From an uncultured SAR86 cluster bacterium (GTDB taxonomy: Bacteria > Pseudomonadota > Gammaproteobacteria > Magnimaribacterales > D2472), in assembly GCA_902511575.1 (NCBI GenBank), contig CABXFU010000004.1:1-64000 (forward strand): a stretch of 64,000 nucleotides of DNA, written 5' to 3'. The position numbers were made by a program, and so were the translations under genes. The notes under the pieces were generated by a model. The model was given only the letters and a program-made list of their open reading frames with translations. It was not told where the DNA came from and searched no databases. This document shows, one piece after another, positions 39,410-47,262 of the stretch; within the stretch, counting starts at the first letter, position 1; each line of letters opens with the position of its first letter.

Positions 39410-41098
39410 CTAATCTGAGATTGTAATGCTACCACCCATACCTGAGTGAAGTGAGCAATAGTAATAAAGTGTAGTTCCATGGTGAGCGTGGCTGCTATTA
39501 AGTCTGGCTTCAATCACAGTGCTACCAGCAGTAGATGTGTTTACACCATCGGTGTATTCGCGAAGTTCTTGGCTTGGGTAACCACCAACAGTAGAGTGAG
39601 TTCCATCTGAGATAGTAGAAAACCTTAGGGGATGAGCCGTTGGATGGCTGAAAGTATAAGTTTTTCCAGCCTCAAGTGTCAGAGATTTCTTCTGCGTACC
39701 TTCAATTACGTAAACATTACCTGAGCCAGCATTATTAGCAGCCACGCTCACTGCAATTGTGACAGCCGAGGAATTTGGTGTAGGTGGAGCAGCGTTAGCT
39801 GTCGGCAACGAACTAAAAGTCAAGCCATCAAGGTACGCCTGAGTTGGATTCACTAGCACTCCATTGACAGTATCTTTAAATAATGTATGGGCCAGCGGTA
39901 ACTTTGTTTCCATTTCTGAGGCATTGATGATGGTCCATTCTGGAGATGCATCTGGAGCATACAGGGATTTTAAATCCCAGCCTGTTACTATCATCCAGTA
40001 TGCAAATTCTTGAGCAATAATTCTTTTATAGAGAGCAGGATCGCTATCAGATAAGCCGCCATAATTGTCTGAAGGATCATAGAAACCACCTGTGATTGCC
40101 TCATTCATCGCAAGAACCAACGCAGATGATTCATCTTCATATCCCCATGATGTATAGCTCTTATCAAATATTAATGTGATGGTATGAAGCAGATGCTCTA
40201 AGATCGCATTAATTTGATTAGCTTTAGTTCGCTCATCAGCTGGGGATCTATAAGTGGACTCCCAAATAAAATCTACAACAGCGTAATTATCATTAATAAA
40301 ATCCCAGCCAGCATAGTTGTCATTGTTAAGTGCTGGATCGTAGCTGCTCATATTGGTTTTTCCAACTCTTTGAAAGGCGTTGTATTGATTAAAATTATTA
40401 AGCAATAAATCTCTATCGACTGAGTTGGTGGAATCATTACTAGCGAGCATTTTATTAGCAATATTTAAAACATTTGTTACAAACCCATCCGTTACATCTG
40501 GCAGGGCGCCCACGATTAAATTGTAAGAAGTTCCATATTTTTCATATGGTTTGTAGGTATCATTTTTTAATAGCACACCATCCCAGGCGCTAGCTGTATC
40601 AGCTGAGGTGTCTTTAATTACAGAAATAGTGAATGCTTGTGAGGAACTGAGAGTTCCATCGCTAACAATAATATTAAAAGAATAGATGTTATCTGAATTG
40701 GTATCTTCAGGAGATTCGAAGTTAGGAGTTAAAATAAAACTTACAACAGCCTCATTAACTCCGTCTTTTTTAGAAATGTTCATTTTAGAAGCATCATCAC
40801 CTGACACTGAAAAGGCTATTGAGTCTCCTTCAGCATCTGATGCACTAACTGTAAATATAGAGGTTATTCCTTCTGGGCTAAAGTAGTCGTTGTTAGGTTC
40901 AAAGTAACAGCAAGCAACCTGAGTATTTGAATATGCACCAAGAATAGTTGGCGCTGTATTTGCAGCAATTGACCCACCAACTTCACCAACATAAGTTCCT
41001 CCATCGCTGCCTCCACCTCCGCCGCAAGCAGACAGGATGAACACAAATAAAAATGGAAGTATTGATTTAAATTTTAAATTTTTGATATAGCTAGTCAT
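39410..41098 (-). CDS. Surface lipoprotein with cadherin-like and cupredoxin-like domains
   Basis: Lipobox LSAC places lipidation at C25, followed by GGGGG. Residues about 45-165 look like a cadherin/Ig-type repeat (NTAPTI, VSASDAEGDSIAFSV, NIYSFNIIVSDGTLSSSQ). A central region of about 270 residues is unfamiliar and includes EHLLHT. The last ~110 residues resemble a cupredoxin: THPxxHP-type histidines in FSHPTAHPLRF, then C548, H551 and M554 (YYYCSLHSGMGG), the type-1 copper C-x2-H-x2-M pattern. Probably anchored in the outer membrane; role unknown, perhaps copper binding or electron transfer. Confidence 0.75.
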   Translation of the reverse strand: MTSYIKNLKFKSILPFLFVFILSACGGGGGSDGGTYVGEVGGSIAANTAPTILGAYSNTQVACCYFEPNNDYFSPEGITSIFTVSASDAEGDSIAFSVSGDDASKMNISKKDGVNEAVVSFILTPNFESPEDTNSDNIYSFNIIVSDGTLSSSQAFTISVIKDTSADTASAWDGVLLKNDTYKPYEKYGTSYNLIVGALPDVTDGFVTNVLNIANKMLASNDSTNSVDRDLLLNNFNQYNAFQRVGKTNMSSYDPALNNDNYAGWDFINDNYAVVDFIWESTYRSPADERTKANQINAILEHLLHTITLIFDKSYTSWGYEDESSALVLAMNEAITGGFYDPSDNYGGLSDSDPALYKRIIAQEFAYWMIVTGWDLKSLYAPDASPEWTIINASEMETKLPLAHTLFKDTVNGVLVNPTQAYLDGLTFSSLPTANAAPPTPNSSAVTIAVSVAANNAGSGNVYVIEGTQKKSLTLEAGKTYTFSHPTAHPLRFSTISDGTHSTVGGYPSQELREYTDGVNTSTAGSTVIEARLNSSHAHHGTTLYYYCSLHSGMGGSITISD

Positions 41099-41160: not shown

Positions 41161-41181
41161 AGCCCAGAATAAATCTGGGCT
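41161..41181 (-). terminator. Hairpin terminator after the second lipoprotein gene
   Basis: AGCCCAGA and TCTGGGCT pair perfectly around a 5-base loop (ATAAA). On the minus strand the hairpin lies 43 bases after the 638-residue lipoprotein stop and is followed by a modest T-rich stretch (GTTTC). It separates the two cupredoxin-type lipoprotein genes. Confidence 0.65.
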
Positions 41182-41223: not shown

Positions 41224-43140
41224 TTAGTAGCCTACTCCACTGTCACCGCCAGATGATTCAGGGCTATAGTGTGATTTTGTTTTAAATATAGTATCTGTTG
41301 TGACTGAAGAGGCTCCATGATAGCCCTGGTCGGCTGTCATATAAAAAGTTATACCAGGATATTCATTAAATTCATGAGTGTGAAAGCTATCTCCAGCATC
41401 AGCTTGCTTCAAGTAAACTTTGTGGGTAAATCCAGACGCACCTTTGAAAGGCCCCTTAGATACAGTTCCTCTTACCTGAAGATTTGAAGTATTATCTCCT
41501 ACATCAATTTTATTAACGTCAAATGACTCAACAATCTCGATCCTTCCTTTTGTGTACATGCCCGCATGCACACCACAGTGCGGATAAAGGGTCAGCGGAG
41601 TAGAGGAGTTAACTATTAACGTGGATGTGGCTTCATCCCAGCCCTGGTCGGGGCCAATGTTATTCACTCCGCTGGTGTCATTTTGAGTTGTAGATAATTC
41701 AAATGGATGGTTTAAAAATACCGCACTTGAGCTTGGATCAAAGACTATCCTATCTCCAACTTTTGCATATATTACAAGTTCTGTTGTGTCCGCATTCACT
41801 GCATCTACCGTATAGTAATCACTGCCCACATTATCAACAAAATATGTTGTAGTTGAGAGATATGCTTCGTTATCATTGTATGAAATAGAAGCTCCATCAT
41901 TTTGGTCAACAACTGAGTTAGTGGAAAATATCATAGAATTTAGTTCGGCTTCAGTGGCAGTTTCATTCACAATTTTCTGTAATAATGCATTGAGCTCACT
42001 GTTTGCAACGCTTGAGTAGTATGAGTGAGCAAATGTATCTCCGTCAGCATAGACTTTTTGGAGGTAAGATGAGATTGAAGCCGAAAGGTTTTCCCACATA
42101 GTATTATTCAATGTGAAACCGCTAAAAGCCCAATCACCAATTAAATTCTTAATAAAAGTAGTATCACCTAAACTTGTTTCAGCGCCAGATCTATCTGCTA
42201 TAGCTTGAGCTAGTTTATAGTTTGTTTTATTTTCTGCAGCAATATCCTCCCCATCTGGATCTATGGACAACAGGGCATTTTCTAGAATTGAAAGCTGAGC
42301 GTTGATCCTTGCAACTTTTTCATAAGTTCCATTTGCAAGATTGCTTAGTGGGTCTGTTGACTCAATAGTAAAACCTGAATCGATATTAAGTTTTGTTTTA
42401 AGAATAGATAAATCCACATTTGGATTTACATGTGCTAGGTTGCTCAATGGAGAAATAACATTAATACCGCTGTTTGAGGGGTTAGTCAGATACATGATAT
42501 TTGTTGAAGGGTAGGTTTGATTGGTTGTAATATCAAAACCTTCATTTGTTACTAATGCACCAGTAAAGTCTTGCGTGAGATTAAATGTCCCATCAGAGTT
42601 TGAAGTTGTTGTTGAGCTTGATCCTGCACACACTGCTCCAGCTTCTGCCTCGACACAAACCTTGGCACTTTGCACATAACCTGATCTTATAACTACCCCA
42701 TCGAAGGAAACTGAAACCACATCATCTGATGTGTCATTGGTAACAGTAATGGTAAAGCCTTGAGATGCGCTTAATGTTCCGTCGCTGACATTTACATTAA
42801 ATGAATAAACATTATCTTTATTATCGTCGGAAGGATTCTCAAAGTCAGGAGCAGAGGCAAAAGCCACGACACCCGATGTGCTGATGGACATATTCGAGGA
42901 GTCAGTACCAGATAATGAATATGATAGGGGGTTTCCATCAGCATCAGATGCGTTCACCATGAAGCCTGAAGTTTGATTTTCTTGAGTTGTATAGTCAGTT
43001 GAGCTGTTATTAATAGTTGGAGCTGCATTTGATGGTGGGGGAGAGTAATCAGAGCCTCCTCCGCCGCCTCCGCCGCCGCCACATGCGGCAAGGAATAATA
43101 CTAAGGATGTAGAAAGAAATGATTTATTTATATTGTCCAT
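41224..43140 (-). CDS. Surface lipoprotein with cadherin-like and copper-site domains
   Basis: Lipobox LAAC (C20) followed by nine glycines. A cadherin-like repeat (about 38-140) closely parallels the neighbour (SDADGNPLSYSLSGTDSS, DNVYSFNVNVSDGTLSASQGFTI). A middle region of ~270 residues is unfamiliar. A cupredoxin-like domain near 440-540 has NHPFEL and C522-G-V-H525-A-G-M528. A further C-terminal part contains HTHEF and GYHG, possibly a second metal site. 638 residues. Paralogous to 39410-41098 at both ends but not in the middle. Confidence 0.75.
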   Translation of the reverse strand: MDNINKSFLSTSLVLFLAACGGGGGGGGGSDYSPPPSNAAPTINNSSTDYTTQENQTSGFMVNASDADGNPLSYSLSGTDSSNMSISTSGVVAFASAPDFENPSDDNKDNVYSFNVNVSDGTLSASQGFTITVTNDTSDDVVSVSFDGVVIRSGYVQSAKVCVEAEAGAVCAGSSSTTTSNSDGTFNLTQDFTGALVTNEGFDITTNQTYPSTNIMYLTNPSNSGINVISPLSNLAHVNPNVDLSILKTKLNIDSGFTIESTDPLSNLANGTYEKVARINAQLSILENALLSIDPDGEDIAAENKTNYKLAQAIADRSGAETSLGDTTFIKNLIGDWAFSGFTLNNTMWENLSASISSYLQKVYADGDTFAHSYYSSVANSELNALLQKIVNETATEAELNSMIFSTNSVVDQNDGASISYNDNEAYLSTTTYFVDNVGSDYYTVDAVNADTTELVIYAKVGDRIVFDPSSSAVFLNHPFELSTTQNDTSGVNNIGPDQGWDEATSTLIVNSSTPLTLYPHCGVHAGMYTKGRIEIVESFDVNKIDVGDNTSNLQVRGTVSKGPFKGASGFTHKVYLKQADAGDSFHTHEFNEYPGITFYMTADQGYHGASSVTTDTIFKTKSHYSPESSGGDSGVGY

Positions 43141-45432: not shown

Positions 45433-47262
45433 ATGATATTTAAACACAATAAAAAAATTTCAAGAAATTTCATTGCATGTTTGATTTGCGCATTATTTGC
45501 TGCTGGTTGTGGAGGAGGGGGTGGCAGCTCGACTCCTCAAGTCAATCCTTTGACTTTTTCACTTACTGGATTGCCCTCATCAGTTGAAAGTTATGAGAAA
45601 GTCTCAATACAAGTTATCCCAAGCATTGAGGGGTGTAAATTTGAGGTTTTAGGCCCAGATTTATTTTGGATAAGCTCTTCAGATGATTTAAATTTTAATT
45701 TCAGGGCACCTATAATTTATACTGGAAGCAAGGAGTTTTCATTTGGTGTTCGTCCAGCTAACTTCACGGTTAAGCCAGAGTGTGCTGGGTCTCAGAATTT
45801 CACATTTAATGTTACAAGAAATCAAACAGAATTTATTCCGAATCCTGAGCCAAGTAATATTCCATATCTAAGTTCTCCATATTTTAATGCTCATGATATC
45901 GGGTTTGGGGGAATAGAAATCTCAGATAGGTATTCAGCCACTGTTTGTTACCCAACAGAAAATGATTGCGTTACATATGAGAATGAATTGTTTGGTCAAG
46001 ATGCTCACAATATTGCAACTGGCGATTTTAATGGCGATGGTTTTGAAGATTTTGTGGTTGCATGGGCCATCTTTCCCCATACCATCGATCAAAGTAAAAA
46101 AATTTACGGGCCCATCAATATTTATTTAAATGATCAAAAGGGTGGATTTGCAGAAGATTTAAATCTTTATTCCGCATCAGAACCTCCTAAACATCCGTTT
46201 GCCTATAGGCTTGTTGTTGATGACCTAAATGGGGATGGCTTAGACGATGTCTTTGCTGGATCAATGGGGCTGTCTGTTGAGCAAGACAAGGGATGGGGCA
46301 TTGATCCTTTCCCACATTTTTTATTGTTATCGAATGCACTTGGTAAGTTTGAAGAAAGCTCTGCAAATATTAATGATGAAAATAATGGCATGGGGCAGTT
46401 ATGCAGATTTGCCCATGATGCTAGTGGCGGAGACCCAGATGGCGATGGCGATATTGATCTTTTTGCTTGCAACATGTTATTGGTTAATGATGGCGAAGGT
46501 AGATTTACCATTCATCCATACCTTAATCTAGATTGGAATTATAAATATGGGAGCCCCATGAGTAGCCTGCTAGCAGATTTAAATAATGATGGGTTTGACG
46601 ATATTATCTTTTGGAACTTCAATGACAGATGGAATTTTAATCAAAATCCAGAGGAGGGCTTTGCTTTGCTTAGTAATGGCACCAAAGAGATTCAAAACTG
46701 GAGAAGAATATCCATACCCCCCGGTCCATTTGGTATCAATCAGACAAAATATAATCATGCAGCAAAAGGAGATTTAAATGATGATGGCTTTGTAGATGTG
46801 GCAGTAGGGATTACTAGAGCTGATCCCTATTATGAAGGCGCTTATGTACAAATCTTAATAAATGATGGTACTGGAAATCTGGTAGATGAGACCGATGCGC
46901 GTTTTACAAATCAAGAAAGAGCAGCCAATCATCACGGTGAGAGTAATATCTATATACGAGATATGAACTTAGATGGAGCTCTTGATATTATTCATTCAAC
47001 AAGAGATTTTCGAACTAGCTATCATGGTGCACATGTTGCAATTAATGATGGAGTTGGTAATTTTCGATCCTTACCAAATTCCACTTTCCCCAACCGACCG
47101 GTATTTTTTAGTGGAAACAACGATACCTTATTTAAAGGCGTCCCAATTGATGCAGACAAACTTGGTTGTCTTGACCTAATTTCTACGACCGACAGCTGGC
47201 AAGATGCAAGCACAACAAGAAACTATCTTTTTTCAATCTTGAATACTGATTGTAGTTACTAG
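45433..47262 (+). CDS. Lipoprotein with FG-GAP/VCBS repeats
   Basis: Signal peptide with lipobox ending AAGC (C26) followed by GGGGG. After an Ig-like stretch, six FG-GAP/VCBS-type repeats with calcium-binding DxNxDG loops can be seen: GDFNGDGFEDF, DDLNGDGLDDV, GDPDGDGDIDL, ADLNNDGFDDI, GDLNDDGFVDV and RDMNLDGALDI. This predicts a beta-propeller of integrin-alpha type on the cell surface, for adhesion or ligand binding. 609 residues. Divergent from proB across a very short gap. Confidence 0.88.
   Translation: MIFKHNKKISRNFIACLICALFAAGCGGGGGSSTPQVNPLTFSLTGLPSSVESYEKVSIQVIPSIEGCKFEVLGPDLFWISSSDDLNFNFRAPIIYTGSKEFSFGVRPANFTVKPECAGSQNFTFNVTRNQTEFIPNPEPSNIPYLSSPYFNAHDIGFGGIEISDRYSATVCYPTENDCVTYENELFGQDAHNIATGDFNGDGFEDFVVAWAIFPHTIDQSKKIYGPINIYLNDQKGGFAEDLNLYSASEPPKHPFAYRLVVDDLNGDGLDDVFAGSMGLSVEQDKGWGIDPFPHFLLLSNALGKFEESSANINDENNGMGQLCRFAHDASGGDPDGDGDIDLFACNMLLVNDGEGRFTIHPYLNLDWNYKYGSPMSSLLADLNNDGFDDIIFWNFNDRWNFNQNPEEGFALLSNGTKEIQNWRRISIPPGPFGINQTKYNHAAKGDLNDDGFVDVAVGITRADPYYEGAYVQILINDGTGNLVDETDARFTNQERAANHHGESNIYIRDMNLDGALDIIHSTRDFRTSYHGAHVAINDGVGNFRSLPNSTFPNRPVFFSGNNDTLFKGVPIDADKLGCLDLISTTDSWQDASTTRNYLFSILNTDCSY

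What the first reader, a model, noticed from the sequence alone, without database searches (positions are those of the whole stretch)
39410..41098. Cadherin-cupredoxin surface lipoprotein with an unknown central domain
Seen: lipobox, GGGGG linker, cadherin-like repeat, ~270 unfamiliar residues, and a C-terminal cupredoxin-like domain with C548-x2-H551-x2-M554. Known: this is the type-1 copper ligand pattern. Inference: an outer-membrane copper protein for electron transfer or copper capture; the central part may be a new domain.
Basis: partly seen in the sequence, partly recalled or inferred. Interest (0 to 1): 0.65.

Follow-up and report, generated by a model that had tools for sequence, protein, structure and literature searches.

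The report
SAR86 lipoprotein sharing phage baseplate domains
A surface lipoprotein of an abundant uncultured ocean bacterium (SAR86) ends in a genuine copper-protein-like domain, and its 'unknown' middle is a new, probably metal-binding domain; both are also found in the tail baseplates of marine phages, which suggests a surface-contact role rather than the electron carrier first proposed.

Summary
Window 39410-41098 (-) encodes a 562-aa SAR86 lipoprotein: lipobox L22-S-A-C25, poly-Gly, cadherin-like domain, about 260 unknown residues, and a C-terminal cupredoxin. Structure prediction plus Foldseek puts the C-terminus with rusticyanin, pseudoazurin and plastocyanin (prob 1.00). All four type-1 copper ligands are in place (H489, C548, H551, M554).

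The central domain (171-432) has no Pfam, NCBIfam or PDB relative. AlphaFold models it confidently (pLDDT 93.8). The best though weak fold matches are zincins: anthrax lethal factor chains and Bacteroides metallopeptidase 4l7a. Its motif is E301-H302-x-x-H305 with E364, not HExxH. One SAR86 branch lost E301, H302 and E364 together, the only 3 changes among 22 invariant columns, which points to one metal-type site.

Both domains also occur in marine contractile-tail phages: about 30% identity over the central domain in 28 IMG/VR contigs and 85 cyanophage isolates, mapped to the baseplate in those inspected; and the cupredoxin in tail fibres and gp9. Three cyanophage isolates (two genera) carry both in one baseplate protein. 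In SAR86 the cupredoxin is a mobile accessory module, also fused to subtilases. This argues against a simple electron carrier and for a surface-binding or processing protein. Function remains inferred.

The parts
39410..41098 (-). CDS P0001, 562-aa predicted outer-membrane lipoprotein
   Evidence: purifying selection; conserved synteny
41024..41098 (-). Signal peptide with lipobox L22-S-A-C25 (Gly at +2, so outer membrane expected by the Lol rule)
   Evidence: sequence; sorting rule from general knowledge
40970..41023 (-). Gly-rich linker after the lipidated Cys
   Evidence: sequence
40604..40969 (-). Cadherin/bacterial-Ig-like domain (aa 44-165)
   Evidence: orthologues pass Pfam Cadherin and Big_9 cut-offs; 51% identical to the P0002 segment
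39803..40588 (-). Central domain (aa 171-432): new family, predicted zincin-like fold, shared with phage tail and baseplate proteins
40184..40198 (-). E301-H302-L-L-H305 motif on the long helix 122-144 of the model
40007..40009 (-). E364, putative third ligand on helix 184-203 (IAQEFAYW)
39887..39889 (-). H404, near-invariant histidine of the central domain (Tyr in the cyanophage isolates and in the KP branch)
39413..39799 (-). C-terminal cupredoxin domain (aa 434-562)
39632..39634 (-). H489, first copper ligand
39437..39457 (-). C548-x2-H551-x2-M554 ligand loop (amicyanin-type spacing)
41224..43140 (-). CDS P0002, 638-aa tandem neighbour: lipobox, poly-Gly, Big_9/cadherin, own middle region, cupredoxin, C-terminal tail
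41557..41832 (-). Cupredoxin domain of P0002 with H478 and C522-x2-H525-x2-M528
41161..41181 (-). Terminator-like hairpin between P0002 and P0001
   Evidence: consensus scan only

Best explanation
P0001 is a lipid-anchored, surface-displayed SAR86 protein. A cadherin-like spacer carries a zincin-like domain with an altered metal site (E301, H302, H305, E364, perhaps H404) and a C-terminal cupredoxin able to bind one type-1 copper. It most likely binds, and possibly processes, a polymer or surface component outside the cell, with the copper domain as an accessory (stabilising, binding or redox-sensing) module. The same two modules serve marine contractile-tail phages in their baseplates. Shown by computation: architecture, cupredoxin fold, homology of both modules to phage tail proteins, co-loss of the site residues. 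Inferred: zincin fold, metal occupancy, and function at the surface.
For: Cupredoxin: Foldseek rusticyanin E 2.5e-4, prob 1.00; pseudoazurin with amicyanin loop prob 1.00; ligands HCHM. Central domain: pLDDT 93.8, pTM 0.92, with long helix 122-144 carrying EHLLH and helix 184-203 carrying QEF; lethal factor chains make up about half of the top 25 PDB matches and 4l7a two more, though none has E below 0.27. Of 22 columns invariant in 30 EH-type sequences, only E301, H302 and E364 change in the branch L008/L009 (K, P, D), and that branch is nested inside SAR86 (96/97). Phage relatives: 28 IMG/VR contigs, 85 isolates, with baseplate, sheath and tube neighbours. Both modules in one protein in Syn33, S-RIM2 and S-RIM12 and in an independent SAR86-order protein, L164. 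The cupredoxin is fused to subtilase plus P-domain elsewhere.
Against: The motif is EHxxH, not HExxH, so classical peptidase activity may be absent. Sequence profiles find no metallopeptidase. Viral contigs that carry the central domain mostly lack the cupredoxin within the fetched flanks. No expression, localisation or binding data exist.
Confidence: 0.5

Rival explanations
1. Copper protein proper: the cupredoxin transfers electrons or captures copper at the outer membrane, and the other domains only display it.
For: Full type-1 ligand set and cupredoxin fold; the neighbour P0002 also carries one.
Against: Same module in phage tail fibres and gp9 and as an accessory to subtilases; no redox or copper-handling gene among the neighbouring ORFs; SAR86 relatives of the central domain exist without it (L036-L039).
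Confidence: 0.15
2. Phage-host interaction protein: SAR86 displays phage-baseplate-like modules as a decoy, exclusion factor or shared receptor-binding device, or phages took the modules from such lipoproteins to contact the same target.
For: Same module pair in cyanophage baseplate proteins; viral copies form one group (91/94) apart from SAR86; the more distant EE-type relatives are bacterial, one of them a lipoprotein, which favours bacterium-to-phage transfer.
Against: The divergence is old (about 30% identity), so no recent exchange; the phages with known hosts infect cyanobacteria, not SAR86; no defence neighbourhood was seen in the window ORFs.
Confidence: 0.15
3. The central domain is not a zincin at all but a new alpha/beta scaffold whose conserved E, H and D residues are structural or bind another ligand.
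For: No Foldseek hit below E 0.001 in PDB or BFVD; no profile match.
Against: Lethal factor chains dominate the top PDB ranks and 4l7a aligns over nearly its whole length; the E-[H/E]-x-x-H helix with a downstream Glu is kept even in remote EE-type relatives.
Confidence: 0.2

Closest known systems
Type-1 copper proteins (rusticyanin, pseudoazurin, plastocyanin; amicyanin-type ligand loop)
   Same: Predicted beta-sandwich fold and His / Cys-x2-His-x2-Met ligand set
   Different: Lipoprotein-anchored accessory module next to a cadherin and a new domain, shared with phage tails; sequence too distant for a significant profile match (best PDB E 0.58)
Zincins of the anthrax-lethal-factor-like group and Bacteroides putative metallopeptidase 4l7a
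   Same: Best fold matches (weak), one long motif helix and a downstream Glu on a second helix
   Different: Motif E-H-x-x-H (or E-E-x-x-H in remote relatives) instead of H-E-x-x-H; no sequence similarity detected; not a toxin context
Cyanophage baseplate wedge protein between gp9 and gp8 (Syn33_094 family)
   Same: Contains the central domain and cupredoxin halves in one protein
   Different: 1713-1721-aa virion protein with a YHYH domain; H404 is Tyr and one cupredoxin copy has lost its ligands
phrog_677, baseplate wedge tail fibre connector (gp9)
   Same: C-terminal about 100 aa homologous to the P0001 cupredoxin, ligands kept
   Different: Phage structural protein, no lipobox, no central domain

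Membership tests
Type-1 copper cupredoxin | Cupredoxin beta-sandwich fold | tested here: met
   Foldseek prob 1.00 to rusticyanin, pseudoazurin and plastocyanin; model pLDDT 78.9
Type-1 copper cupredoxin | His, Cys, His, Met ligands in order | tested here: met
   H489, C548, H551, M554; HCHM in 94 of 95 homologues
Type-1 copper cupredoxin | Binds copper, blue absorbance | not testable with these tools
   needs purified protein
Zincin metallopeptidase (lethal-factor-like) | Zincin fold | tested here: inconclusive
   Top Foldseek matches are lethal factor chains and 4l7a but E is 0.27 or more
Zincin metallopeptidase (lethal-factor-like) | HExxH motif | tested here: not met
   EHLLH in P0001, EHxxH in SAR86 and viral relatives, EExxH in remote ones
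Zincin metallopeptidase (lethal-factor-like) | Third ligand (Glu) on a downstream helix | tested here: inconclusive
   E364 on helix 184-203 is conserved and lost together with E301/H302; geometry not measured
Bacterial cadherin/Ig domain | Profile match above the curated cut-off | tested here: met
   Orthologues L035 and L033 pass; the P0001 copy itself does not
Outer-membrane lipoprotein | Signal peptide, lipobox Cys, no Asp at +2 | tested here: met
   L22-S-A-C25-G26
Phage-derived gene or prophage part | Lies among phage genes | tested here: not met
   Housekeeping neighbours (proA, rsmJ, uppP), synteny kept in two genera

The most novel reading that the evidence does not exclude
The central domain is a new metal-dependent family (E-[H/E]-x-x-H...E) that, together with a type-1 copper cupredoxin, is a portable two-part surface-contact device used both by ocean bacteria on their outer membrane and by contractile-tail phages in their baseplates, so that metal chemistry at the phage-host contact is a shared and exchangeable trait.
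Probability: 0.2. Interest if true: 0.85.

Novelty: new variant of a known kind. Interest (0 to 1): 0.56.

Why it matters
The central domain is in none of the family libraries searched here, yet it sits in 85 sequenced cyanophage genomes and on the surface of SAR86, one of the most abundant uncultured ocean lineages. Its pairing with a copper-ligand-complete cupredoxin in both settings makes a testable link between metal-binding surface modules of bacteria and phage baseplates. Iron in marine phage tail fibres is already discussed as part of host recognition (PMC11705849); a type-1 copper site in tail fibres and baseplates would extend that idea to copper. I found no paper on it in the held library.

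Tried and rejected
Pfam and NCBIfam scans of the protein and of the central domain: nothing above chance. PDB sequence search with P0001, A1, A3, A5 and A6: nothing convincing; the weak hit to a phage baseplate centrepiece (8fqc, E 0.063) has too little alignment to use. BFVD fold search: nothing. Rejected: prophage remnant (housekeeping neighbours, conserved synteny); recent phage transfer (viral copies form a separate group); pseudogene (dN/dS about 0.11), although the G039 copy is split (L007). Literature: no paper on SAR86 with such a protein, nor on cupredoxins in phage tails. Wider taxonomic search: only remote EE-type relatives in 2 of 349 phylum-level genomes apart from the window's own, and no other gammaproteobacterium among 369.

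Full report
What is there. The window lies in a SAR86-type gammaproteobacterial genome: the nearest named relatives are SAR86 cluster bacteria, 97% identical in this protein. ORF 39410-41098 on the minus strand is intact, 562 aa. It has a lipobox L22-S-A-C25 followed by poly-Gly, a cadherin/Ig-like domain that passes Pfam thresholds in its orthologues, a central domain (171-432) and a C-terminal domain (434-562). Next to it, P0002 (41224-43140) has the same layout and its own C-x2-H-x2-M cupredoxin. P0002-type proteins of about 636 aa occur across most of the family; P0001-type proteins occur in eight of 107 family genomes, two of which lack the cupredoxin and one of which is split. P0001 keeps its place beside rsmJ in two SAR86 genera, and between proA and rsmJ where both flanks are on the contig. 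It is under purifying selection.

The C-terminal domain is a cupredoxin. The model of aa 434-562 hits rusticyanin, pseudoazurin with an amicyanin loop and plastocyanin with Foldseek probability near 1. H489, C548, H551 and M554 match the type-1 ligand set with the short amicyanin spacing. Ninety-four of 95 distinct homologous domains keep all four; the pattern scan that gathered the viral ones favours H489 and C548, so the unbiased part is H551 and M554, plus the SAR86 and gp9 copies found by other means.

The domain is not confined to electron-transfer settings. It sits in other SAR86 proteins of 565 to over 2148 aa, most with a poly-Gly lipobox where the start is visible, two with Peptidase_S8 and P_proprotein domains. 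It matches the C-terminus of phrog_677, the baseplate wedge tail fibre connector, tail fibres of cyanophages and pelagiphages and at least 317 IMG/VR loci. I read it as a mobile accessory module with a copper-competent site.

The central domain is a new family. Pfam, NCBIfam and PDB sequence searches give nothing. It occurs in a minority of SAR86-order genomes, alone in a lipoprotein in L037-L039, and in no other gammaproteobacterium of 369 tested. But 28 IMG/VR contigs and 85 isolated cyanophages encode it at about 30% identity. In the phage records inspected it lies in baseplate proteins next to gp9 and gp8 (Syn33, S-RIM2, S-RIM12) or annotated as wedge initiator (RN05-S); in the IMG/VR contigs inspected it lies beside a baseplate wedge subunit (L046) or tail sheath and tube genes (L056). 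In Syn33, S-RIM12 (Brizovirus) and S-RIM2 (Nerrivikvirus) one protein of about 1715 aa holds cupredoxin segments and the central domain, and the neighbouring gp9 holds a further cupredoxin; in RN05-S only the central domain is found. A separate SAR86-order protein (L164) also joins central-type domains, a cadherin-like stretch and a cupredoxin. The pairing thus recurs in different protein contexts.

Fold and site of the central domain. AlphaFold with 27 SAR86 and viral sequences gives pLDDT 93.8 and pTM 0.92. PDB matches are weak, but about half of the top 25 are anthrax lethal factor chains and two are Bacteroides putative zinc metallopeptidase 4l7a. The long helix 122-144 carries E301-H302-L-L-H305 where zincins have HExxH, and helix 184-203 carries E364. 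E301, H302, H305 and E364 are invariant in 30 EH-type sequences; H404 is nearly so. Remote relatives in two other proteobacterial genomes and in L164 read E-E-x-x-H with the same downstream Glu. In one nested SAR86 branch (L008, L009, which also lacks the cupredoxin) E301, H302 and E364 become K, P and D, and these are the only changes among the 22 invariant columns (Fisher p 0.0026; the ligand set was in part chosen after seeing the alignment, so this p is optimistic). H404 becomes Tyr in the same branch. Tree: viral copies form one group (91/94) and the KP branch lies within SAR86 (96/97). Coordinates of the model were not available, so the geometry is inferred.

How it most likely works. 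The protein is displayed on the outer membrane by its lipid anchor and cadherin-like spacer. The central domain binds a metal or a ligand through a modified zincin-like site and contacts, perhaps cleaves, an extracellular polymer. The cupredoxin is an accessory that may stabilise, bind or sense. Recurrence of the two modules in phage baseplates points to surface contact as the common theme. Whether phages took it from bacteria is unproven; the more distant EE-type relatives found are all bacterial, which leans that way.

Limits. No experiment, no expression data, no site geometry; host of most viral contigs unknown; the IMG/VR assignment of contigs as viral was checked only through neighbouring tail genes of two loci and through isolate genomes.

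Noticed in passing
window 41224-43140 (-): P0002, the tandem neighbour, is the more widely conserved SAR86 protein (about 636 aa in most genomes of the family) with a cupredoxin and a conserved C-terminal tail (sub-threshold Bflower_3 match).
   Followed up: partly
window 45433-47262 (+): A third poly-Gly lipoprotein within 8 kb, with four FG-GAP repeats (Pfam E 6.7e-20).
   Followed up: no
L007:1501-3070: The P0001 orthologue in G039 is split into two overlapping frames (144 and 389 aa): a frameshift or an assembly error.
   Followed up: no
L164:222-3878: A protein of over 1391 aa in the same order with an AHEYFH (HExxH) domain, an EH-type central domain, a cadherin-like stretch, an EE-type central domain and a cupredoxin in one chain.
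   Followed up: partly
L070:6754-11919 (Syn33_094): The cyanophage baseplate protein also carries Pfam YHYH (E 6.4e-14) in two stretches that appear to be interrupted by the cupredoxin and central domains.
   Followed up: no
L166:85-6528 and L168:3270-7001: SAR86 surface lipoprotein of 2148 aa and a 1244-aa chain that fuse subtilase (Peptidase_S8), cadherin, cupredoxin and P-domain.
   Followed up: partly
L036:4983-6020: Directly upstream of the KP-type gene lies another poly-Gly lipoprotein that looks like a polyester/feruloyl-esterase-type hydrolase (reading of the sequence only).
   Followed up: no
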